Program-made: the position numbers and the translations under genes
Notes under the pieces: model-generated
Database searches by the model: none
What the model was told of the DNA's origin: nothing
The model's input: the letters and a program-made list of their open reading frames with translations, nothing else
In this document: positions 56,017 through 64,000 of the stretch, piece after piece
How positions within the stretch are numbered: the first letter of the stretch is position 1
How the letters are laid out: each line of letters starts with the position of its first letter
From: Proteinivorax hydrogeniformans
GTDB lineage: Bacteria; Bacillota; Proteinivoracia; Proteinivoracales; Proteinivoracaceae
Assembly (NCBI RefSeq): GCF_040515995.1
Contig: NZ_CP159485.1
Location: 620,001 to 684,000, forward strand
Length of the DNA stretch: 64,000 bases
Direction of reading: 5' to 3'

Positions 56017-56144
56017 AAAATAAGTCAGCAAGCTAGCTCTTAGTTATGGGGCGAGGTAAAAATGACTCTCAAATATTTTTTTAGGCAGTTCCCAGAAATT
56101 TAAAATTACTCGAAATTAAATTATATAGATTGTAGGTGAATAAA

Positions 56145-56726
56145 ATGGATAAGATAAGTAAGTTGGCAAAAACGATACGGATAATTACTGTGGTGCCTAT
56201 TATGGCGCTAGTTATGTTAGTAATTCTTTATAGAATTAACCAGAACATTTTTCTAGAAACTTATCAATATGTTCTAACTTTAGTATTTCTGACAATATTG
56301 CCATTATCGGCTTACCCATTACAGCCAGTTTTGCCTAAATTTCGTGATAAGGGCAGAGAAGGGCAACGTAATCTTGCTCTTGTGATGGGGGTTTTGGGGT
56401 ATTTAGGTGGTATTATTTGGGCGATCTGTTTCCATACAACACAAGAACTACTATTTATATATCTAATTTACTTTTTATCAGGAATTGGGATATTACTTTT
56501 TAATAAAGTGTTAAAAATTCGTGCAAGCGGTCACGCTTGTGGAGTAGCAGGCCCAATTCTAATTTTGATGTACTTTATCGGCAGCAAAGCTCTTATCAGC
56601 ATAGTTGTTCTTGCATCAGTATTTTGGGCATCAATAAAAACTAAGCGCCATACGATGCCGCAACTGATTTGGGGTAGTGTGATTCCGGTAGTTGCCCTGC
56701 TACTAGCGAAGTTGCAAATTTTTTAA
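56145..56726 (+). CDS. Integral membrane protein, possibly PAP2-like
   Basis: About 193 residues with five or six membrane segments. KIRASGHACGVAGP followed later by KTKRHTMPQLIWG resembles the SGH and histidine motifs of PAP2-type phosphatases, but the first (lysine-arginine-proline) motif is not clear. Function is uncertain. GTG at 56136 is in frame; TAGGTGA suits the ATG at 56145. Confidence 0.5.
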   Translation: MDKISKLAKTIRIITVVPIMALVMLVILYRINQNIFLETYQYVLTLVFLTILPLSAYPLQPVLPKFRDKGREGQRNLALVMGVLGYLGGIIWAICFHTTQELLFIYLIYFLSGIGILLFNKVLKIRASGHACGVAGPILILMYFIGSKALISIVVLASVFWASIKTKRHTMPQLIWGSVIPVVALLLAKLQIF

Positions 56727-56815
56727 GAAACTTATGTTAGGCTATATGCTGTTAAATAAGTAAATGTAACCAAAAACCGAAGCTAGTTTTTTTAGAAAGT
56801 TAAGGGGGATGCAAA

Positions 56816-57031
56816 ATGGGGAAAACTTCAAAAATTCTTTTCAGCAGCGGGTTTTTATTGATTTTGGCAATGCTTGTTCATATTATAGTGGCATGGATTA
56901 GTCATGATAACACTGTAGGAAACAGCGCTCCAGCATCTGTAAACTTAACATTAGCAATATACTATGTGGTTCCAATTGGTATTCTTTTTGCAATAGGATA
57001 CTATATCAAAAATCGTGAAATTAGTAATTAG
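56816..57031 (+). CDS. Small two-helix membrane protein
   Basis: 71 residues with two hydrophobic helices (ILFSSGFLLILAMLVHIIVAW and LAIYYVVPIGILFAIGYYI) joined by a polar loop. AAGGGGG lies 8 nt before the ATG, supporting translation. The family is not recognised. A terminator follows. Confidence 0.6.
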   Translation: MGKTSKILFSSGFLLILAMLVHIIVAWISHDNTVGNSAPASVNLTLAIYYVVPIGILFAIGYYIKNREISN

Positions 57032-57355: not shown

Positions 57356-57407
57356 TTGACAAAGTTAAACTAAAAAGAGTATAATTTGAATGAGAATCAT
57401 TTTCAAC
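57356..57407 (+). promoter_or_regulatory. Iron-locus promoter with Fur-like box 1
   Basis: TTGACA 57356-57361, 18 bp, TATAAT 57380-57385. Immediately downstream lies TTGAATGAGAATCATTTTC, an imperfect palindrome matching the 19-bp Fur consensus at 14 of 19 positions (counted by eye). Bound repressor would sit on the transcription start. Confidence 0.8.
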
Positions 57408-57430
57408 TACTCGAACTGGATGTTCTCAAC

Positions 57431-57507
57431 ATTTAGTGGCGGACAACAGCCAGTAAAAAATGGGCCTAACTAATAGTTAGTGGGGGAGGGAAGGCCCCTC
57501 ACTAAAT
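57431..57507 (+). ncRNA. Structured 5' leader, family unknown
   Basis: Nested pairing in the iron-locus leader. An outer stem ATTTAGTG (57431-57438) pairs with CACTAAAT (57500-57507). Within it lie a small hairpin GGCGGACAACAGCC and a long arm GGGCCT (57462-57467) / AGGCCC (57492-57497), capped by CTAAC / GTTAG, with a purine-rich strand TGGGGGAGGGA. This looks like a compact junction RNA. No T-run follows, so it could act on translation. It might be a metal-sensing riboswitch; I cannot assign it to a known class. Confidence 0.5.
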
Positions 57508-57549
57508 GAAGTTCACTTTATGCTTTTTTGAATTAGGAGTTGAGAGTTA

Positions 57550-58593
57550 ATGTTCGATAAAACTAGCTTTTGTCAACTTAGAGTATCTAAAAGTAGAGTT
57601 ATTAAATGTTTAAAGGCTCTATTTTTTATTAGTATATTAATATATTTAATTTTGAATTTACCTGATCTCTTAATTCACATAAAAGCGGTTTCGCTCTCAA
57701 CAATGGCAGGTTTGATTGTACTTCAGTTGTTAGCGATGTTAGTAATAGCTTATCAGTGGAAACTGTGTGATAAAGTGCTAGATATAAAACCTAGCCCTGA
57801 ACATTGTCCAAAGAGAAATGGTAAACTTAGAGTAATGGATTTTTGGATTTTAAATAGTTATGGAAAACTATTAGAAGGAATCACACCAGGGGCCAAAACA
57901 GGGGGAGAAGGGCTAAAAGCTGTGATGCTAGTAAACAAATTTAAGCATACAAAGAAAGATGCGGTAATATTGGTGTTAATTCAAAAAAGTGTTAGTCTAG
58001 TTAGTTTTCTAAGCATCTTAATTGCTTTATGTGTCATTTTTTCAGTACAAGGAAGTCACACATTGATTAACCTTTCTAATGTAGTAAAAATACTGGCAAT
58101 TATAGCGCTTGCGATAATATCATTAGGCTTAATTCTAAAGTATATCAGCCAAAAAAACAGCAAATACAAGGAGTTATTGAAACTCGATGAGTTAATTAGC
58201 ACTTTAAGAAAAAGAAAATTTTTTGTGTTTTTAGCCTTTCTATTAGGGTTATTTAACTGGACTCTACTATGTAGTTCGGCTTTTTTAATTAGTTTGGATA
58301 TGGAATTGGGTCTCTCAGGTCTTCAAGTAGCGAATGCAACCTTCATGGGTTATTTATTTAGTATGATACCGATAAGTCCAGGGGGTATAGGTACTTACGA
58401 AGGAGCGATGACACTACAACTATCTAACTTTAATGTTACTTATAGTTCTGCGCTAGGGTTAAGCATATTGAGTAGAGTTTTTACTTTTTGGATAGCTATT
58501 TTAATCTCGTTTTTTACAATCACTTTAATTAAAGTTAAAAAAAAAGGTAAGATGATTAATTTTGGTAGTTTAACAGCGCTGTTGTTTTCATGA
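57550..58593 (+). CDS. UPF0104/LPG-synthase-TM-type membrane protein (1)
   Basis: 347 residues, about eight membrane segments. TPGAKTGGEGLKAVMLVNKF and ISPGGIGTYEGAMTLQL are the family's conserved loops. The family is related to the flippase part of lysyl-phosphatidylglycerol synthase; members move lipids or remain uncharacterised. The gene follows a Fur-like box and structured leader, so it should be iron-repressed. It ends just before the second Fur-like promoter of feoA. A paralogue lies at 59718. Confidence 0.8.
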   Translation: MFDKTSFCQLRVSKSRVIKCLKALFFISILIYLILNLPDLLIHIKAVSLSTMAGLIVLQLLAMLVIAYQWKLCDKVLDIKPSPEHCPKRNGKLRVMDFWILNSYGKLLEGITPGAKTGGEGLKAVMLVNKFKHTKKDAVILVLIQKSVSLVSFLSILIALCVIFSVQGSHTLINLSNVVKILAIIALAIISLGLILKYISQKNSKYKELLKLDELISTLRKRKFFVFLAFLLGLFNWTLLCSSAFLISLDMELGLSGLQVANATFMGYLFSMIPISPGGIGTYEGAMTLQLSNFNVTYSSALGLSILSRVFTFWIAILISFFTITLIKVKKKGKMINFGSLTALLFS

Positions 58594-58631
58594 CACAAGT
58601 TAGATTACAACGAAAATTTTGTTCCAAGTCA

Positions 58632-58685
58632 TTGACAAAGTTCTTGAACTGCAATATAATTGAAAGGGAAATGAAAGTCATTCTC
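58632..58685 (+). promoter_or_regulatory. feoA promoter with Fur-like box 2
   Basis: TTGACA 58632-58637, 17 bp, TATAAT 58655-58660, then GAAATGAAAGTCATTCTC (58668-58685), about 14 of 19 consensus positions. Same geometry as box 1. Confidence 0.78.
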
Positions 58686-58718
58686 AAATACAAAAATTAT
58701 GAAAGGAAGTGTTTGGAC

Positions 58719-58997
58719 ATGGCTGTGGATACAAAAAGAATGTATGAAGAAAAGATGGTTAAAAGCATCTTACAAAATAAATCCTTAGAACAGTTAAGAC
58801 CTGGAGAGCAAGGTGTGATAGTTAATGTTCCAGCTAACTCTTTCTTAGCTTCTTTAGGATTTAGAGCAAAAAAAACAGTTAAAATTATAGCTAAAGAACT
58901 ATTTAACGGTCCTTTGCTTTGTTCTGTTGATGGTAGGAACATAGCTATAGGCTCTGATGTTGCGGGAAAAATTATTGTTAATTCAACTGAAAAATAA
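58719..58997 (+). CDS. feoA: FeoA-domain protein
   Basis: 92 residues with one SH3-like FeoA domain (SLEQLRPGEQGVIVNVP, FLASLGFRAKKTVKIIAKELFNGPLLCSVDGRNIAIGSDVAGKIIV). FeoA is a small cytoplasmic partner of the ferrous transporter FeoB. The N-terminus has about 25 extra residues compared with a minimal FeoA. The frame is open upstream to 58590, but the promoter at 58632-58660 and GAAAGGAAG before the ATG set the start at 58719. Confidence 0.9.
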   Translation: MAVDTKRMYEEKMVKSILQNKSLEQLRPGEQGVIVNVPANSFLASLGFRAKKTVKIIAKELFNGPLLCSVDGRNIAIGSDVAGKIIVNSTEK

Positions 58998-59017
58998 TCA
59001 CATTTTATTATTTGGGT

Positions 59018-59036
59018 TTTAATGATAATTATTATC
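59018..59036 (+). promoter_or_regulatory. Fur-like box 3
   Basis: TTTAATGATAATTATTATC matches the 19-bp Fur consensus at about 16 of 19 positions by eye, the best of the three. It lies between feoA and the nicotianamine-synthase-like gene. A clear promoter next to it was not found. Confidence 0.7.
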
Positions 59037-59065
59037 ACTAACTTAATAATAGCATCGATCTAATT

Positions 59066-59100
59066 AAAGCAAGCATAGTTTAAATTGGTGCTTGCTTTAA
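59066..59100 (+). terminator. Hairpin after feoA
   Basis: TAAAGCAAGC / GCTTGCTTTA with a 15-nt loop and only a weak T-run. Possible terminator or mRNA end. Confidence 0.5.
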
Positions 59101-59140
59101 TGTATTTATATCCAAAACGCAAAATCGGAGGCTTATCATA

Positions 59141-59683
59141 ATGAAGAAATTTTTTGCTTCAGTTGAAAAAATATGCTGCGAATTTTATCCAGCCTTTTAT
59201 ATTTACCATAGAATATATAAAAATGTTATGCGCAATGAAATTAAATTAGCTAACATAACTTCAAAAGATGTAGTGCTGAATATAGGTTGCGGAGCTGTTC
59301 CTTTTACTGCGTTGCATATAGTGCAGATGACTGGTGCTAAAGTGATTGCTTTAGATAAGGATAAAGAAGCTGTTGAAAAAGCGAAAAAGTGTTTGTCAAA
59401 GTATAAAATGCAAAAAAACATAGAGATAGTCGTAGGAGATGGGATTGTAGAAAACCTTCCTGATTTTACTGTAGCCATTATTGCCTTACATGTAAAAGAA
59501 AAAGCAAAAATGTTGGAAAATCTTAAGTTGGCTAAAAAAACAGGGACAAGGGTTATATTTCGTCAGCCTGCTGCCGGGTATGAAGAGGAGTACGGTTGCT
59601 TGCCGGATAACTATATCCCTAATTGCAAAATAAGTCAAAAAATGAAGGCTTTTAATGAATCACATCTTTATCTTATTGAATAA
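59141..59683 (+). CDS. Nicotianamine-synthase-like SAM-dependent enzyme
   Basis: 180 residues, Rossmann methyltransferase fold. VVLNIGCGAVPFTALHIVQMTGAKVIALDKDKEAVEKAK is the S-adenosylmethionine site. Its GCGAVPFTA form resembles nicotianamine synthases more than ordinary methyltransferases. Such enzymes join aminocarboxypropyl groups from SAM to make metal chelators. It is shorter than typical NAS (about 260 or more residues) because the N-terminal helical domain is reduced. Context (Fur box, feoA, feoB) favours a metal role. A plain methyltransferase is the alternative. Confidence 0.6.
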   Translation: MKKFFASVEKICCEFYPAFYIYHRIYKNVMRNEIKLANITSKDVVLNIGCGAVPFTALHIVQMTGAKVIALDKDKEAVEKAKKCLSKYKMQKNIEIVVGDGIVENLPDFTVAIIALHVKEKAKMLENLKLAKKTGTRVIFRQPAAGYEEEYGCLPDNYIPNCKISQKMKAFNESHLYLIE

Positions 59684-59717
59684 TCGCTTGCTTATAGAAA
59701 TGTGGGGGTAAAATGAC

Positions 59718-60731
59718 TTGAAAAAATCACTTTTATTAGTAGTGGCAATACTATTTTTTCTTGTGGTAACTATAGTTTTGGGCTTTGAAGAGGTTTATGA
59801 TGTAATAGGCCGAATGAGTATCTTCCAACTTTTTGCAATGACAGCTTTGCAGTTATGCACTCTATTTTTAACAAGCTTTATATGGTATTATCTATTAAAG
59901 CAAAAGTCTAACCAGGTTTCCTTAAGTAATGTCTTTGGCATAAACTTAGCTGGATCTTTTGTAGAAAGTGTTACACCTTCGGTAAAAGTAGGTGGCGAGG
60001 CTTTAAAAGTTTATTTAATGCAAAAGGAAACTTCCCTTAAATATACCGAAATTACTGCTATAACATTGGTAAGTAAATTTATTTCTTTGTTTCCCTTTTT
60101 AATTATTAGTTTCTTTACACTTTGCATAGCATTTATAAGTTTTGACCTACCGCTATTTGTATTGTTAGCTTTTTTTGGCTTACTTTTATTTTTTAGTTTA
60201 TTTTTTGTTATTTTTAATTTTGAAGGGTCTTTTTTAGGACGGAGCTTTTCCAAACTTGAGCAAACTGAAAGGCCTGTTCTTAAAAAAATCAAAGAAAAAG
60301 TCAACAAAACACAAGTTTTTTTAGAAGAAACTTCGATAAAATCAAAAACAGTAGTTACTGACTATCGCAAACGTCTTTTACTGTTTTCAATCGCATTTAT
60401 AGTTTGGGCTTTTTATCCTGTTAAGGTGTATTTAGTAGCTAGGATATTAGGTTTTCAGTTAAGTCCGGTCATTGTTATAATAGCAACCTTTACTGCATAC
60501 CTAGTTAGTATGGTTCCACTGCTTCCTGGTGGCCTAGCCACTTTTGAAGGAACGTTAGCTTTGATTTTAGCTTATGAGGGGTTAGCACCCCATGAAGCTT
60601 TTTCTATAGCGATAATGACTCGTGTAATTACTTTTTGGATTCCTCTATTGGTATCGGTAGTTCCAGCTATTTACTATATAGGTAAAACGAAAGATAAAAC
60701 GGAAAGTGAAAGAAGGTGGTTAAGATGGTAA
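59718..60731 (+). CDS. UPF0104/LPG-synthase-TM-type membrane protein (2)
   Basis: 337 residues, about eight membrane segments. Family loops: FVESVTPSVKVGGEALKVYLMQ and LLPGGLATFEGTLALIL. Paralogue of the protein at 57550. The start is TTG with GGGGG 9 nt upstream. It lies between the NAS-like gene and feoB and overlaps the latter by 7 bp, so it is translated together with feoB. A role in exporting or importing a small metal-binding molecule or a lipid can be proposed only from context. Confidence 0.8.
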   Translation: MKKSLLLVVAILFFLVVTIVLGFEEVYDVIGRMSIFQLFAMTALQLCTLFLTSFIWYYLLKQKSNQVSLSNVFGINLAGSFVESVTPSVKVGGEALKVYLMQKETSLKYTEITAITLVSKFISLFPFLIISFFTLCIAFISFDLPLFVLLAFFGLLLFFSLFFVIFNFEGSFLGRSFSKLEQTERPVLKKIKEKVNKTQVFLEETSIKSKTVVTDYRKRLLLFSIAFIVWAFYPVKVYLVARILGFQLSPVIVIIATFTAYLVSMVPLLPGGLATFEGTLALILAYEGLAPHEAFSIAIMTRVITFWIPLLVSVVPAIYYIGKTKDKTESERRWLRW

Positions 60732-62539
60732 AAGATCAAGCTAAACCGAATATACTTATGATAGGCCAGCCTAACATAGGAAAAAGTGTTATGTTTAATA
60801 ATCTTACAGGATTAAATATAAGCGCAGCAAACTATGTGGGTACTACAGTGGAATTTACCGCTGGCGAAGTTAAGTTAGGTGACTTGAAGGCTAACCTGAT
60901 AGATGTTCCAGGAACGTATACTTTGGAAGCAACCAATGAAGCTGAACAGGTAGCTGTGGAAATGCTTCAAGGTAAGACAAATCGTACTAAAACAAAAAAC
61001 TGTCATGAAGACGGTGGACTTCAGTGCGTTAATTTAACCAAAAGTCCCGATGCGGTAATATGTGTATTAGATGCCCATAACCTTGAGAGTAGCCTTTATC
61101 TTTTATTTCAAGTAATGGAATACAATATACCCACTATCGCTGTTCTTAATAGGATGGACCTTATTGAAGAGCGTGGGGAAAAGATTGATGTAAAATACCT
61201 TTCTAAGCTTCTAAAAATGCCTGTGATTCCGACGGTTGCCGTTGAGAGAAAAGGTGTAGATACATTAAAAGAAATGCTAAAGGGGATATTATCCACCGGA
61301 GCAGCAAGAGAAGACGAAACAGCGAAAAAACTTGACGATGGAGAGATTAAAGACGAGTATTGGAAAAAAGCTGAGAAAATCACTAGACAAGTAAAAACAA
61401 AGCCATCGGTTGAAAAAAAGACAAGAGGGCAGATCTGGGGAGCAGCTTTAGTTAAACCTTGGCCAGGAATCCCTCTAGCGATACTAATTTTAGGTGCAAT
61501 TTTTGGTCTTGTCGTTGGTGTTGGGATGGGACTTCGTAATTACTTATTATTACCTCTTTTTAGGGGCCTTATCATCCCAGCAATATCTTCAGTCGTAGAA
61601 GTTATTGTGCCTGAAGGACTAATTCTTAATGTTTTAATTGGTGAATATGGTATCTTTGTAAAAGGGTTGGAGTGGCCTTTAACTCTTGTATTGCCATATG
61701 TACTTTCATTTTATTTTGCCTTAAGTATAATGGAAGATTGCGGATATCTTCCTAGATTAGGTGTACTGTTAGATGGGCTATTAAGTAAGTTAGGATTACC
61801 TGGTTCTAGCATCGTTCCATTGCTTTTAGGATATGGTTGTGGAATACCAGCAATTATGGCAACTAGATCTTTAAATTCAAAAAAAGAGCGAATTACCGTT
61901 TCGACAATGGTTTCTTTAGGTATACCATGCGTAGCCCAGTCAGGAGCCTTTATAGCACTTATGGCTGAGAGGTCTATTGTAGCGTTGTTATTAGTATTTT
62001 TATTTTCCTTTGCAGTCGTTTTTGCAGCTGGGTTTGTTATAGACAAGATACTTCCTGGCAGCAGGCCGTATACTATAATGGAAATACCAGAGCTCCTTTT
62101 CCCAAAAGGAGAGGTTATATTTAAAAAAGTGTGGTCAAAGGTAAAAAATTACTTAAAAGAAGGCGTTATTCCCATGATGGCTATTGTCGGTATTGCAGCC
62201 TTCTTATATGAAAGCGGCATAATGGAGTGGATTGGCGAGGCGCTAAGTCCTTTAGTGGTAAGTTGGCTAAACCTACCTGCGGAAGCCTCTGTACCTTTGA
62301 TTCTTGGCGTATTTAGGCGTGAGCTCACTGTTATTCCTTTAATGGAGATGGATTTAACTAACCTGCAGCTCTTCACTGGTGCTATAGTTGGGCTATTGTA
62401 TGTTCCTTGTGTAGCCATAATAGCTACTTTAGCTAGAGAGTTTAACATTAAAATGGCAGTGTTTATACTAGTACTGACTAGCTCGCTAGCCTTTTTAATA
62501 GGGGGCATTGTAGCTAGAGTAGGTGGCTTGATATTTTAG
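60725..62539 (+). CDS. feoB: Ferrous iron transporter FeoB
   Basis: 604 residues. N-terminal G domain: GQPNIGKS (G1), a Thr pair in VGTTVEFTAG (G2), DVPGTYTL (G3), NRMD (G4). The membrane part has the two Gate motifs, GYGCGIPAIMATR with GIPCVAQSGAF, and FRRELTVIPL with YVPCVAIIATLAREF. Between G3 and G4 is an extra Cys/His-containing loop (NCHEDGGLQCVN). Shorter than the 750-residue proteobacterial form. The ATG at 60725 has AAGGTGG upstream. Confidence 0.93.
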   Translation: MVKDQAKPNILMIGQPNIGKSVMFNNLTGLNISAANYVGTTVEFTAGEVKLGDLKANLIDVPGTYTLEATNEAEQVAVEMLQGKTNRTKTKNCHEDGGLQCVNLTKSPDAVICVLDAHNLESSLYLLFQVMEYNIPTIAVLNRMDLIEERGEKIDVKYLSKLLKMPVIPTVAVERKGVDTLKEMLKGILSTGAAREDETAKKLDDGEIKDEYWKKAEKITRQVKTKPSVEKKTRGQIWGAALVKPWPGIPLAILILGAIFGLVVGVGMGLRNYLLLPLFRGLIIPAISSVVEVIVPEGLILNVLIGEYGIFVKGLEWPLTLVLPYVLSFYFALSIMEDCGYLPRLGVLLDGLLSKLGLPGSSIVPLLLGYGCGIPAIMATRSLNSKKERITVSTMVSLGIPCVAQSGAFIALMAERSIVALLLVFLFSFAVVFAAGFVIDKILPGSRPYTIMEIPELLFPKGEVIFKKVWSKVKNYLKEGVIPMMAIVGIAAFLYESGIMEWIGEALSPLVVSWLNLPAEASVPLILGVFRRELTVIPLMEMDLTNLQLFTGAIVGLLYVPCVAIIATLAREFNIKMAVFILVLTSSLAFLIGGIVARVGGLIF

Positions 62540-62593: not shown

Positions 62594-62616
62594 TTTTACA
62601 GATAAAAATTAAATAA

Positions 62617-62845
62617 CTTGTTAGGAGAGGCTCCTAAATGAACATAGGCTATTGCCCAAAAATGTCGAGAGACGCCAATGGGTATAACAGGCACGGCCGG
62701 AGTAAGGCCTGCTTAAGATAGCTGATTCTTAGAATCTACGTCATTTAGTGCTAAAACCCAGACGAGGAGTTTATAGACAAATTTATAAAGAATACTTTTC
62801 TTTATGATTGGGACTATTATGATGCCCATTATTATTTGTGTGCTT
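62617..62845 (+). promoter_or_regulatory. M-box (ykoK) magnesium riboswitch
   Basis: The aptamer has the conserved series GTTAGGAGAGGCTCCTAAATG, GGCTATTGCCCAAAAATGTCGAGAGACGCCAATGGGT-type core (62647-62682), AACAGG and GGCCTGCTTAAG. It sits directly upstream of mgtE, the usual target. High magnesium should favour the terminator at 62846. Confidence 0.93.
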
Positions 62846-62904: not shown

Positions 62905-63054
62905 ATGGAGGTTGACAGTGTTCCGCGATGGTATGGCGAATGTATAAAAAGATCTGGATTGATAAAAAATAAAATGAAATCGGAGGGATTATCATGGAAA
63001 AGTTCAAAAAAACCATTTGGACTCATCTTGAGAAAAGAGAAATGGACTCTTTAA
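62905..63054 (+). CDS. 49-residue ORF overlapping the mgtE start
   Basis: Starts with ATG 62905 after a near-perfect AAAGGAGGTGA (62888-62898) and runs 49 codons, ending at TAA 63052-63054. That is 61 bp inside mgtE in another frame. The peptide is basic (MEVDSVPRWYGECIKRSG..., ending RKEKWTL). It lies after the riboswitch terminator, so it would be translated only when mgtE is transcribed. It may be a leader ORF controlling mgtE translation; the product is not recognised. Confidence 0.5.
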   Translation: MEVDSVPRWYGECIKRSGLIKNKMKSEGLSWKSSKKPFGLILRKEKWTL

Positions 63055-64000
63055 AAGAGCTATTAAGTAAGTCAGAAGTAATTGAGATTTTGGATGTTAT
63101 GAGGGAGTTATCGGCTGAAGAACAAGTAATTGTATATAGATTACTATCAAAGAACAAGGCTTTGTTAGTTTTTGAGCAGTTAGATGTTAGCTTACAGCAA
63201 AAACTATTATCTTCCTTTACAGAGGAAAAAGTTATAGAATTGATTTCAGAGCTTGCTCCAGATGATAGAGTACGGCTATTAGATGAGCTGCCTGCCAAAG
63301 TAACTAAAAGACTAGTTCGTTCATTATCACCGGAAGAAAGAGAAGAAACAGCTCTATTAATGGGTTACGATGATGAAACTGCCGGTAGGCTGATGACAAC
63401 TGAATATGTCAGGCTTAAAAGAAGCTATACAGCCAAAGAGGCATTAGAAAAGGTAAGAACATATGCACCAGACAAGGAAACAATTTACACAATATATATT
63501 ACCGATGATAGTACAAAATTAGAGGGAGTGCTATCATTAAGAGAACTTGTAATTGCATCACCTGAAGATACTTTAGAAGATATTATGCACAAAAAGGTTA
63601 TTAAGGTATCCACCGGCACAGACCAAGAAGAAGTGGCCCGAACTTTGCAGGAGTTAGATCTAATGGCACTTCCGGTAGTTGATAAAGAAAATAGGCTAGT
63701 GGGTATAATTACTGTTGATGATGCTATGGATATTATCGACGAGGAAACCACAGAGGATATCTTTGACAAGGCAGGCTTAAGAGATTTAAATGATAGAGAG
63801 TCTGATCGTAGTGAAAGGTTAGTTAATGGCTCGCTTATTCAGATTTGGAAAGCTCGGCTGCCATTTTTAGTAATAACTATGATAGGTGGATTGCTAGCAG
63901 GTGCTGTTATCGATGCCTTTGAGGAAGCGTTAGAGGCAGTTGCAGCTGTAGCGATATTTATACCAGTTATTATGGATATGGGTGGTAATGCAGGAACACA
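62994..64000 (+). CDS. mgtE: Magnesium transporter MgtE (partial)
   Basis: 335 codons in the window; the 3' part is beyond the edge. N-terminal helical domain (residues 1-130: LRELSAEEQVIVYRLL, LAPDDRVRLLDELPA), a CBS pair (TTEYVRLKRSYTAKEALE, VLSLRELVIA, DLMALPVVDKENRLVGIITVDDAMDII), the plug helix, and the first membrane helices (ARLPFLVITMIGGLLAGAVI, then PVIMDMGGNAGT, the ion-path signature). The CBS domains sense internal magnesium. The ATG follows CGGAGGG. Confidence 0.95.
   Translation, partial: MEKFKKTIWTHLEKREMDSLKELLSKSEVIEILDVMRELSAEEQVIVYRLLSKNKALLVFEQLDVSLQQKLLSSFTEEKVIELISELAPDDRVRLLDELPAKVTKRLVRSLSPEEREETALLMGYDDETAGRLMTTEYVRLKRSYTAKEALEKVRTYAPDKETIYTIYITDDSTKLEGVLSLRELVIASPEDTLEDIMHKKVIKVSTGTDQEEVARTLQELDLMALPVVDKENRLVGIITVDDAMDIIDEETTEDIFDKAGLRDLNDRESDRSERLVNGSLIQIWKARLPFLVITMIGGLLAGAVIDAFEEALEAVAAVAIFIPVIMDMGGNAGT

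What the first reader, a model, noticed from the sequence alone, without database searches (positions are those of the whole stretch)
57356..62539. Iron locus with three Fur-like boxes, a NAS-like enzyme and two flippase-like proteins
feoA and feoB are interleaved with a short nicotianamine-synthase-like gene and two UPF0104-type membrane proteins. Box scores are about 14, 14 and 16 of 19 by eye. This suggests an undescribed route: a SAM-derived metal chelator made inside, moved by the membrane proteins, with the ferrous iron taken up by FeoB.
Basis: inference. Interest (0 to 1): 0.7.

Follow-up and report, generated by a model that had tools for sequence, protein, structure and literature searches.

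The report
Iron-uptake operon with possible lipid chelator
A widespread but, as far as I could find, undescribed set of bacterial iron-uptake genes pairs the ferrous iron pump FeoB with a shortened nicotianamine-synthase-like enzyme, an MprF-type lipid flippase and often a phosphatidylserine-synthase-like enzyme, suggesting that these bacteria make an iron-catching membrane lipid instead of a secreted chelator.

Summary
The genes lie where stated, and the three Fur-like boxes score 14, 14 and 16 of 19. The 180-residue protein places with nicotianamine synthase (NAS) and CntL, not with ordinary methyltransferases: PDB profile E 1e-24 and 4e-21 against 3e-7 for the next match; the catalytic Glu and Tyr are kept in 98 and 99 of 99 relatives. 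The N-terminal 72-75 residues of NAS/CntL are missing. The second membrane protein has the MprF lipid-flippase fold.

The cluster is conserved: of 62 named loci counted, feoB is near in 53, the flippase in 55, both in 48. NAS-FeoA and flippase-NAS fusions occur. Nineteen of 63 named loci add a phosphatidylserine-synthase (PssA)-like gene. In 398 genomes of the phylum, none of 19 with PssA in this cluster has phosphatidylserine decarboxylase; 121 of 125 other PssA genomes have it. The 5 of 40 carriers without PssA all have a second NAS clade.

I propose that the enzyme moves an aminocarboxypropyl group from SAM onto phosphatidylserine (or serine) and the flippase turns the chelating lipid outward to feed Fe2+ to FeoB. 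Chemistry, transport and metal binding are inferred.

The parts
57356..57385 (+). sigma-70-type promoter TTGACA-18-TATAAT
   Evidence: 12 of 12 consensus matches
57391..57405 (+). Fur-like box 1 TGAGAATCATTTTCA (2 mismatches; 14/19 for the 19-mer at 57386)
57550..58593 (+). flippase-like membrane protein 1 (LPG_synthase_TM / TIGR00374, 347 aa)
   Evidence: Pfam 95.1 bits, TIGR00374 71.0 bits
58632..58660 (+). sigma-70-type promoter TTGACA-17-TATAAT
   Evidence: 12 of 12 consensus matches
58672..58686 (+). Fur-like box 2 TGAAAGTCATTCTCA (3 mismatches; 14/19 for the 19-mer at 58667)
58719..58997 (+). feoA (92 aa)
   Evidence: Pfam FeoA 51.9 bits, cut-off 23
59023..59037 (+). Fur box 3 TGATAATTATTATCA, the only exact TGATAATNATTATCA in the genome
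59141..59683 (+). NAS/CntL-like aminocarboxypropyl-transferase candidate without the N-terminal part (180 aa); E9, Y26, E33, G49, G51, P54, R141 invariant in 62 aligned relatives
59718..60731 (+). flippase-like membrane protein 2 (337 aa), MprF flippase fold, invariant E277 and R302
60716..62539 (+). feoB (607 aa), overlapping the flippase gene
   Evidence: FeoB_N, Gate, FeoB_C; TIGR00437 302.7 bits, just under its cut-off of 315.65

Best explanation
This is a Fur-controlled ferrous-iron uptake operon that makes a membrane-anchored, nicotianamine-like chelator. Step 1 (inferred): phosphatidylserine is made by PssA, which sits in the operon in one group of relatives and elsewhere in the window's genome. 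Step 2 (fold and catalytic residues shown by comparison; reaction inferred): the shortened NAS-like enzyme uses its Glu9-Tyr26 pair to deprotonate the amine of phosphatidylserine, or of serine before PssA acts, and transfers the 3-amino-3-carboxypropyl group of SAM to it. Loss of the N-terminal part of NAS and CntL may open the active site to a lipid head group (inferred). Step 3 (fold shown, transport inferred): the MprF-type flippase moves the amino-dicarboxylate lipid to the outer leaflet, where it binds Fe2+. Step 4 (inferred): FeoB/FeoA take the iron up. Where PssA is absent, a second NAS clade (NAS2) supplies the amino-acid head group (inferred). A lipid-bound chelator would not be lost by diffusion, which suits cells in iron-poor alkaline water.
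For: Enzyme: profile vs PDB, MtNAS 9.5e-25, CntL 3.8e-21, next 3e-7; model pLDDT 94.0; VIA-align Z 20.8 to MtNAS (178 aligned, 2.5 A, model 1 = residue 73) and 19.3 to CntL (model 1 = residue 76), so by offset E9 falls on MtNAS E81 and CntL E84; E81Q and E84Q are deposited mutants, and Glu81 and Tyr107 are the proposed bases (PMC10491745 passages). E9 in 98 of 99 rows (one gap), Y26 and R141 in 99 of 99. Linkage: 62 named loci, feoB within four genes in 53, flippase 55, both 48, neither 2; fusions NAS2-FeoA (L046, L058, L059) and flippase-NAS2 (L156). Lipid: the flippase model matches six MprF entries (Z 16.2-18.2, next 4.8); E277/R302 invariant in 40 of 40, 25 apart, against 24 for the RtMprF gate pair and 25 for the SaMprF pair; PssA-like gene at 19 of 63 named loci. 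In 398 genomes of the phylum (PssA at E<=1e-20, PSD at E<=1e-10) 0 of 19 with cluster PssA have PSD vs 121 of 125 other PssA genomes, Fisher 4e-20, not corrected for kinship; of 23 PssA+ PSD- genomes 21 have the NAS-like gene, of 121 with both 14. Carriers without PssA: 5 of 40, all with a NAS2-clade gene. Of 15 named carriers, the three without a good PssA match are two-NAS genomes (one, Fuchsiella, appears to be the same genome as G301). Regulation: 33 of 71 leading upstream regions have a Fur box with at most 2 mismatches, 0.8 expected.
Against: No product, activity or iron response was measured. No flippase is seen beside the NAS genes in L177 (12 kb), L053 and L056, nor in the shorter or edge-bound L036, L057, L058 and L062. 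L055 and L066 have NAS and flippase but no feoB with nearly 6 kb on both sides, L033 likewise, and NAS genes with neither stand alone in L035, L087, L158, L160, L186 and the window genome's own L031. The window's genome has PSD as well as PssA, so the PssA argument comes from relatives. Six of eight cluster PssA proteins tested are under the pssA cut-off and score higher against archaetidylserine synthase models, themselves far under their cut-offs, so the alcohol used may not be serine. Foldseek's own E-values for MprF are weak (best 1.7e-3), and MprF is reported as a promiscuous scramblase (PMC11980842 abstract), so the fold names no cargo. G268 has NAS2 with both PssA and PSD. The 19 genomes come from nine families, so they are not independent.
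Confidence: 0.5

Rival explanations
1. Soluble chelator: the NAS-like enzyme adds an aminocarboxypropyl group to a free amino acid; the flippase-like proteins export the product, or it acts inside the cell as an iron chaperone that hands iron from FeoB onward.
For: The characterised relatives named in the review (NAS, MtNAS, CntL) act on soluble substrates (PMC10491745 passages). Some loci have NAS genes and feoB with no flippase seen beside them. NAS-FeoA fusions put the enzyme at the cytoplasmic side of FeoB.
Against: The flippase fold is that of a lipid translocator. PF10100 opine dehydrogenase is found in 0 of 61 relatives (control silent). ABC transporter genes lie within seven genes at some loci (ABC ATPases at 9 of 63) but of mixed kinds by eye and none as regular as feoB or the flippase. 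The PssA/PSD pattern has no place in it.
Confidence: 0.2
2. Lipid modification that serves FeoB or surface charge rather than chelation: the modified lipid changes head-group charge or is an annular lipid for FeoB.
For: Same enzyme, flippase and PssA evidence; MprF lipids are tied to resistance against cationic peptides (starts of abstracts in the listing).
Against: Linkage is to ferrous iron uptake and Fur boxes, and the known products of NAS-like enzymes are metal chelators. It differs from the main explanation only in the last step.
Confidence: 0.15
3. Protein modification: the enzyme attaches aminocarboxypropyl groups to FeoA or FeoB.
For: NAS2-FeoA fusions and tight linkage to feoAB.
Against: Does not explain the flippase-NAS2 fusion, the PssA gene, or NAS genes without feoB nearby.
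Confidence: 0.07
4. Ordinary SAM methyltransferase that happens to lie by feoB.
For: Pfam's best single hit for the window protein is Methyltransf_31 (4e-8); the Rossmann fold matches over a thousand chains, and some non-NAS enzymes reach Z 18.8.
Against: NAS/CntL lead by more than ten orders of magnitude with a profile; invariant Glu/Tyr and NAS-type GxGxxP motif; conserved linkage.
Confidence: 0.03

Closest known systems
Nicotianamine synthase, archaeal MtNAS type (PF03059; PDB 3fpe/3fpj)
   Same: Rossmann core, GxGxxP motif, Glu (E81) and Tyr (Y107) equivalents, conserved Arg (R141); Z 20.8 over 178 residues.
   Different: First 72 residues absent; under the Pfam gathering score for the window protein (23.8 vs 27.1 bits); linked to feoB, flippase and, in relatives, PssA.
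Staphylopine enzyme CntL (NF033601; PDB 7c7m/7c9m)
   Same: Same core and Glu (E84) by structure offset; Z 19.3.
   Different: First 75 residues absent; 47.2 bits against a cut-off of 350; outside the family's branch in the tree (94/91 support); no CntM-type dehydrogenase found in 61 relatives (control silent).
MprF (aminoacyl-phosphatidylglycerol synthase/flippase; PDB 6lvf, 9goe)
   Same: Flippase fold (Z 18.2, 286 aligned) and an E...R pair at about the gate spacing; pairing, and once fusion, with a presumed head-group-modifying enzyme.
   Different: No tRNA-dependent synthase domain (337 aa); the partner is NAS-like; under the MprF cut-off (43.5 vs 600 bits).
Feo ferrous iron transport system (FeoA, FeoB)
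   Same: feoA and feoB with Fur-type sites.
   Different: Two or three extra gene families; searches of PMC8749426 and PMC10353542 for methyltransferase, flippase and nicotianamine found none of these words.
BtaA betaine-lipid synthesis
   Same: Aminocarboxypropyl from SAM ends up on a lipid (PMC10491745 passage).
   Different: That review says BtaA appears not homologous to NAS/CntL; a link to iron uptake is not known to me (recall).

Membership tests
NAS / CntL family | SAM-binding Rossmann core with NAS-type motif and closest sequence-profile and structural match to NAS/CntL | tested here: met
NAS / CntL family | Catalytic Glu (MtNAS E81, CntL E84) and Tyr (MtNAS Y107) | tested here: met
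   E9 98/99, Y26 99/99; offsets. Caveats: no residue-by-residue structure alignment was seen; MAFFT puts a different Glu of full-length NAS at E9 than the structure offset does, and puts no Tyr of CntL at Y26, whereas hmmsearch does.
NAS / CntL family | N-terminal domain of about 72-75 residues | tested here: not met
   Model residue 1 aligns at MtNAS 73 and CntL 76
NAS / CntL family | Curated scores PF03059 (27.1) and NF033601 (350) | tested here: not met
   23.8 and 47.2 bits. The Methanosalsum member passes PF03059 (29.8 bits).
NAS / CntL family | Aminocarboxypropyl transfer with methylthioadenosine release | not testable with these tools
   needs enzyme assay
Opine metallophore system (cnt type) | CntM opine dehydrogenase | tested here: inconclusive
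   PF10100 0 of 61 genomes including own, but no control rang
Opine metallophore system (cnt type) | Dedicated ABC importer and exporter genes beside the NAS-like gene | tested here: inconclusive
   ABC ATPase genes within seven genes at 9 of 63 named loci, of mixed kinds by eye; none regular; not classified with a family library
MprF-type lipid flippase (LPG_synthase_TM, TIGR00374) | Family score and flippase fold | tested here: met
   PF03706 95.1 and 150.9 bits; TIGR00374 71.0 and 121.4 (cut-off 43.2); fold tested for protein 2 only
MprF-type lipid flippase (LPG_synthase_TM, TIGR00374) | Lipid translocation | not testable with these tools
   needs reconstitution
MprF (whole) | C-terminal aminoacyl synthase domain | tested here: not met
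   proteins end after the flippase domain
Feo system | FeoB G-domain and gate domains; FeoA | tested here: met
   TIGR00437 slightly under cut-off
Fur regulon | Fur boxes at promoters of the cluster, recurring in relatives | tested here: met
   three fur-family genes over the cut-off in the genome; binding and response not tested
PssA (phosphatidylserine synthase), in relatives' clusters | TIGR00473 cut-off 107 bits | tested here: inconclusive
   2 of 8 over the cut-off, the other six 64-107 bits and higher with archaetidylserine synthase models

The most novel reading that the evidence does not exclude
A lipid-anchored metallophore: a shortened NAS-like enzyme turns phosphatidylserine into an N-(3-amino-3-carboxypropyl) lipid, an MprF-type flippase displays it on the outer leaflet, and it gathers Fe2+ for FeoB. 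Where PssA is missing, two NAS enzymes build the whole head group on another lipid by two successive transfers. In the 19 genomes with PssA in this cluster and no decarboxylase, phosphatidylserine synthesis would then exist for iron uptake and not for phosphatidylethanolamine.
Probability: 0.45. Interest if true: 0.92.

Novelty: categorically new. Interest (0 to 1): 0.8.

Why it matters
The abstract of PMC8749426 calls Feo the most widespread ferrous iron system in bacteria and says that the roles of its accessory proteins and its mechanism are unclear. A lipid-modifying module with Fur sites joined to FeoB, found in 40 of 398 sampled genomes of the phylum (about 25 families), in MAGs assigned to several other phyla and in the archaeon Methanosalsum natronophilum, would add a way of catching metals by membrane lipid rather than by secreted chelator. 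It would give functions to an unnamed NAS-like family and to a set of flippase-like (UPF0104-type) proteins, and would explain why some bacteria make phosphatidylserine without the enzyme that turns it into phosphatidylethanolamine. It makes a sharp prediction: phospholipids 101 Da heavier under iron starvation. If the product proves soluble, this falls to a new variant of NAS-type metallophore systems.

Tried and rejected
Ordinary methyltransferase: rejected by profile, residues and linkage; fold alone would not decide it. Opine metallophore of the cnt type: 0 of 61 relatives have PF10100, but the control was silent, so the absence is not proven. M-box riboswitch and mgtE after feoB: an ordinary neighbour with its own leader, not part. 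Fur boxes by number alone: rejected as proof (48 sites against 34 for the control at 2 mismatches; four one-mismatch sites against 2.9 expected); the case rests on position and recurrence. The count (48 of 149 regions with at most 2 mismatches vs 1.3 expected) double-counts feoA/feoB regions and was replaced. Other one-mismatch boxes of the genome: one lies inside a coding frame (mreC-like by eye), one upstream of a gene of no plain iron role, one in a spacer. Sequence search of the flippase alignment against PDB found nothing; the fold search did. N-terminal helix amphipathy (moment 0.52 for residues 2-14) was judged too weak to argue membrane binding. Literature: searches listed no paper that I could recognise as describing this cluster; I saw listings and starts of abstracts, and passages of eight papers (PMC10248798, PMC10491745, PMC7438024, PMC8131360, PMC4557348, PMC8749426, PMC10353542, and the abstract and outline of PMC11980842). 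One search's terms matched 370 papers, of which ten were listed. The library lacks most subscription journals and holds no bioRxiv preprints.

Rows dropped and limits: the genome scan used one peptide pattern, which forces D43, V45, L46, I48, G49 and G51 in the named loci; E9, Y26, E33, P54 and R141 are not in the pattern. L108-L117 (10 of 73 loci) did not score as the family and were left out of all counts. L078 was lost by my gene caller although its NAS-like frame is intact, so counts are on 62 of 63. A2 holds 62 rows (the window and 61 of 78 NAS-like frames that one search listed). For the phylum counts I took as carriers the genomes whose best match was 122 bits or more (40 of 398); the next, 85 and 84 bits, look CntL- and NAS-like by motif and neighbour. 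'No PssA' means none at E<=1e-20, 'no PSD' none at E<=1e-10; MAGs can be incomplete. The gene lists were copied by hand; G093 and G127 were placed in the cluster group after reading L182 and L183. That the phylum is Bacillota is my inference.

Full report
What is there. The window carries, on one strand, a flippase-like gene (57550-58593), feoA (58719-58997), a 180-residue SAM-enzyme gene (59141-59683), a second flippase-like gene (59718-60731) and feoB (60716-62539), followed by an M-box riboswitch and mgtE that belong to another unit. Two perfect sigma-70 promoters (57356-57385, 58632-58660) are each followed by a Fur-like box, and a third box, a perfect TGATAATTATTATCA at 59023, stands in front of the enzyme gene. 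In the 2.83-Mb genome this is the only exact TGATAATNATTATCA. One of the four one-mismatch sites lies 90 bases upstream of the genome's other NAS-like gene. Genome-wide box counts are close to chance (four one-mismatch sites, 2.9 expected; 48 against 34 for the control at up to two mismatches), so this is an argument from position. In relatives, 33 of 71 leading upstream regions hold a box with at most two mismatches against 0.8 expected.

What the enzyme is. Single-sequence searches against NCBIfam and PDB already prefer CntL and MtNAS, while Pfam's best is a general methyltransferase model. A profile of 62 rows gives MtNAS 9.5e-25, CntL 3.8e-21 and nothing else better than 3e-7. The predicted structure is confident (pLDDT 94.0, pTM 0.89). 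Its best structural matches are MtNAS (Z 20.8, 2.5 A, 178 residues) and CntL (Z 19.3); other SAM enzymes follow at 18.8 and lower, so fold alone would not decide it. Residue 1 of the model falls on residue 73 of MtNAS and 76 of CntL, so the N-terminal part of both is missing, and by offset E9 falls on E81 and E84, the residues changed in deposited mutants. A review says that Glu81 and Tyr107 deprotonate the acceptor amine (PMC10491745, passages seen). E9 is kept in 98 of 99 and Y26 and R141 in 99 of 99 family rows. The tree puts the family apart from CntL- and NAS-like rows (94/91 support, a little under the mark of 95). It is therefore a shortened NAS-like family, neither NAS nor CntL by their curated scores.

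Conservation of the cluster. A scan of the species-genome collection with one peptide pattern gave 73 loci; 63 are family members, and 62 could be counted. Within four genes, feoB is found in 53, the flippase in 55, both in 48 and neither in 2, one of which (L060) ends at a contig edge. Two layouts dominate: feoA-feoB-NAS-flippase(-pssA), and NAS1-flippase-NAS2-feoA-feoB, the latter mostly in isolates and MAGs whose sample names I take (from memory) to be soda lakes; the binning of these MAGs I cannot check. Three NAS2 genes are fused to FeoA (L046, L058, L059) and one flippase is fused to NAS2 (L156). In a sample of 398 genomes of the phylum, 40 carry the family (best match 122 bits or more), with a gap to CntL- and NAS-like proteins at 85 and 84 bits. 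The window's gene lies in the NAS1 clade, while the genome's second copy lies with its own family's genes, so the window operon was probably gained horizontally (inference).

The lipid link. The second flippase-like protein was modelled (pLDDT 88.9). All six structures that match with Z over 5 are MprF (Z 16.2-18.2; the next is 4.8), though Foldseek's own E-values are weak (1.7e-3 at best). Its E277 and R302 are invariant in 40 of 40 relatives and 25 apart, against 24 for the Glu280-Arg304 gate pair of RtMprF and 25 for Asp254-Arg279 of the S. aureus protein (PMC8131360, passages seen). A CDP-alcohol phosphatidyltransferase-like gene stands beside the flippase at 19 of 63 named loci. Of eight tested, two pass the pssA cut-off; the other six score higher with archaetidylserine synthase models. 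The strongest result is from gene content: of 144 genomes with PssA, 19 have it inside this cluster, and none of the 19 has phosphatidylserine decarboxylase; of the other 125, 121 have it (Fisher 4e-20, not corrected for kinship; the 19 come from nine families). Of all 23 genomes with PssA but no decarboxylase, 21 carry the NAS-like gene, against 14 of 121 with both. Five of the 40 carriers have no PssA; all five have a NAS2-clade gene. I then tested 15 named carriers: the three without a good PssA match (Fuchsiella, Halonatronum, Halanaerobium polyolivorans) are two-NAS genomes, though Fuchsiella appears to be the same genome as one of the five. So carriers have PssA, or NAS2, or, in G268 and possibly others, both.

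How it most likely works. The enzyme transfers an aminocarboxypropyl group from SAM to the amine of phosphatidylserine, or to serine before PssA acts; the missing N-terminal part may give a lipid access; the MprF-type protein turns the product outward; the head group, with two carboxylates, two amines and a phosphate, binds Fe2+ and hands it to FeoB. Shown here: family placement, kept catalytic residues, folds, linkage, fusions, Fur boxes, and the PssA/decarboxylase pattern. Inferred: substrate, product, direction of transport, chelation and hand-over. Against it stand loci with no flippase seen (L177, L053, L056 and shorter ones), loci without feoB nearby (L055, L066, L033), NAS genes standing alone (L035, L087, L158, L160, L186 and the window genome's L031), the presence of both PssA and decarboxylase in the window's own genome, the doubtful naming of the cluster PssA, and the breadth of lipids that MprF is reported to move (PMC11980842 abstract).

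Known or new. The literature searches listed no paper that I could recognise as describing the cluster. Term searches of the zincophore survey PMC7438024 found no mention of feo, flippase or lipid, and those of two Feo papers found no mention of methyltransferase, flippase or nicotianamine. Each part belongs to or stands near a known family; the assembly and the proposed product do not belong to a system I know. I rate it categorically new on the lipid reading, at about even odds, and a new variant of NAS-type metallophore systems otherwise.

Noticed in passing
62610-62777 and 62994-63998: M-box magnesium riboswitch (RF00380, 153 bits) directly upstream of mgtE (cut by the window end): ordinary.
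   Followed up: no
L031:5709-6263 (own genome C1:1626208-1626762, -): Second NAS-like gene of the window's genome, alone beside a spoVB-like gene (by eye), with a one-mismatch Fur box 90 bases upstream; in the sister genome (L033) a flippase gene follows it, and in three family members (L038, L039, L042) feoA-feoB-NAS-flippase lies near the same kind of gene.
   Followed up: partly
L160:4466-5098 (-): Standalone NAS-like gene with a perfect Fur box upstream, near what look by eye like a metal ABC transporter (TroA/ZnuA type) and an MntR-like regulator; hints at a role beyond ferrous iron.
   Followed up: no
L046:5951-6853, L058:598-1530, L059:7733-8641, L156:5850-7565: Natural fusions: NAS2-FeoA three times, flippase-NAS2 once.
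   Followed up: partly
   Followed up: no
L088: The archaeon Methanosalsum natronophilum carries feoB-NAS-flippase; its NAS-like protein passes the Pfam NAS cut-off (29.8 bits).
   Followed up: partly
L062:5006-5683, L090:8287-8667, L099:7114-7515, L100:8147-8524, L101:8076-8405, L104:8024-8413: DtxR/MntR-like regulator genes beside the cluster at six named loci (named by eye); a Fur-like gene precedes it in L178.
   Followed up: no
56136-57031: Two small predicted membrane proteins upstream of the operon with no family match over its cut-off.
   Followed up: no
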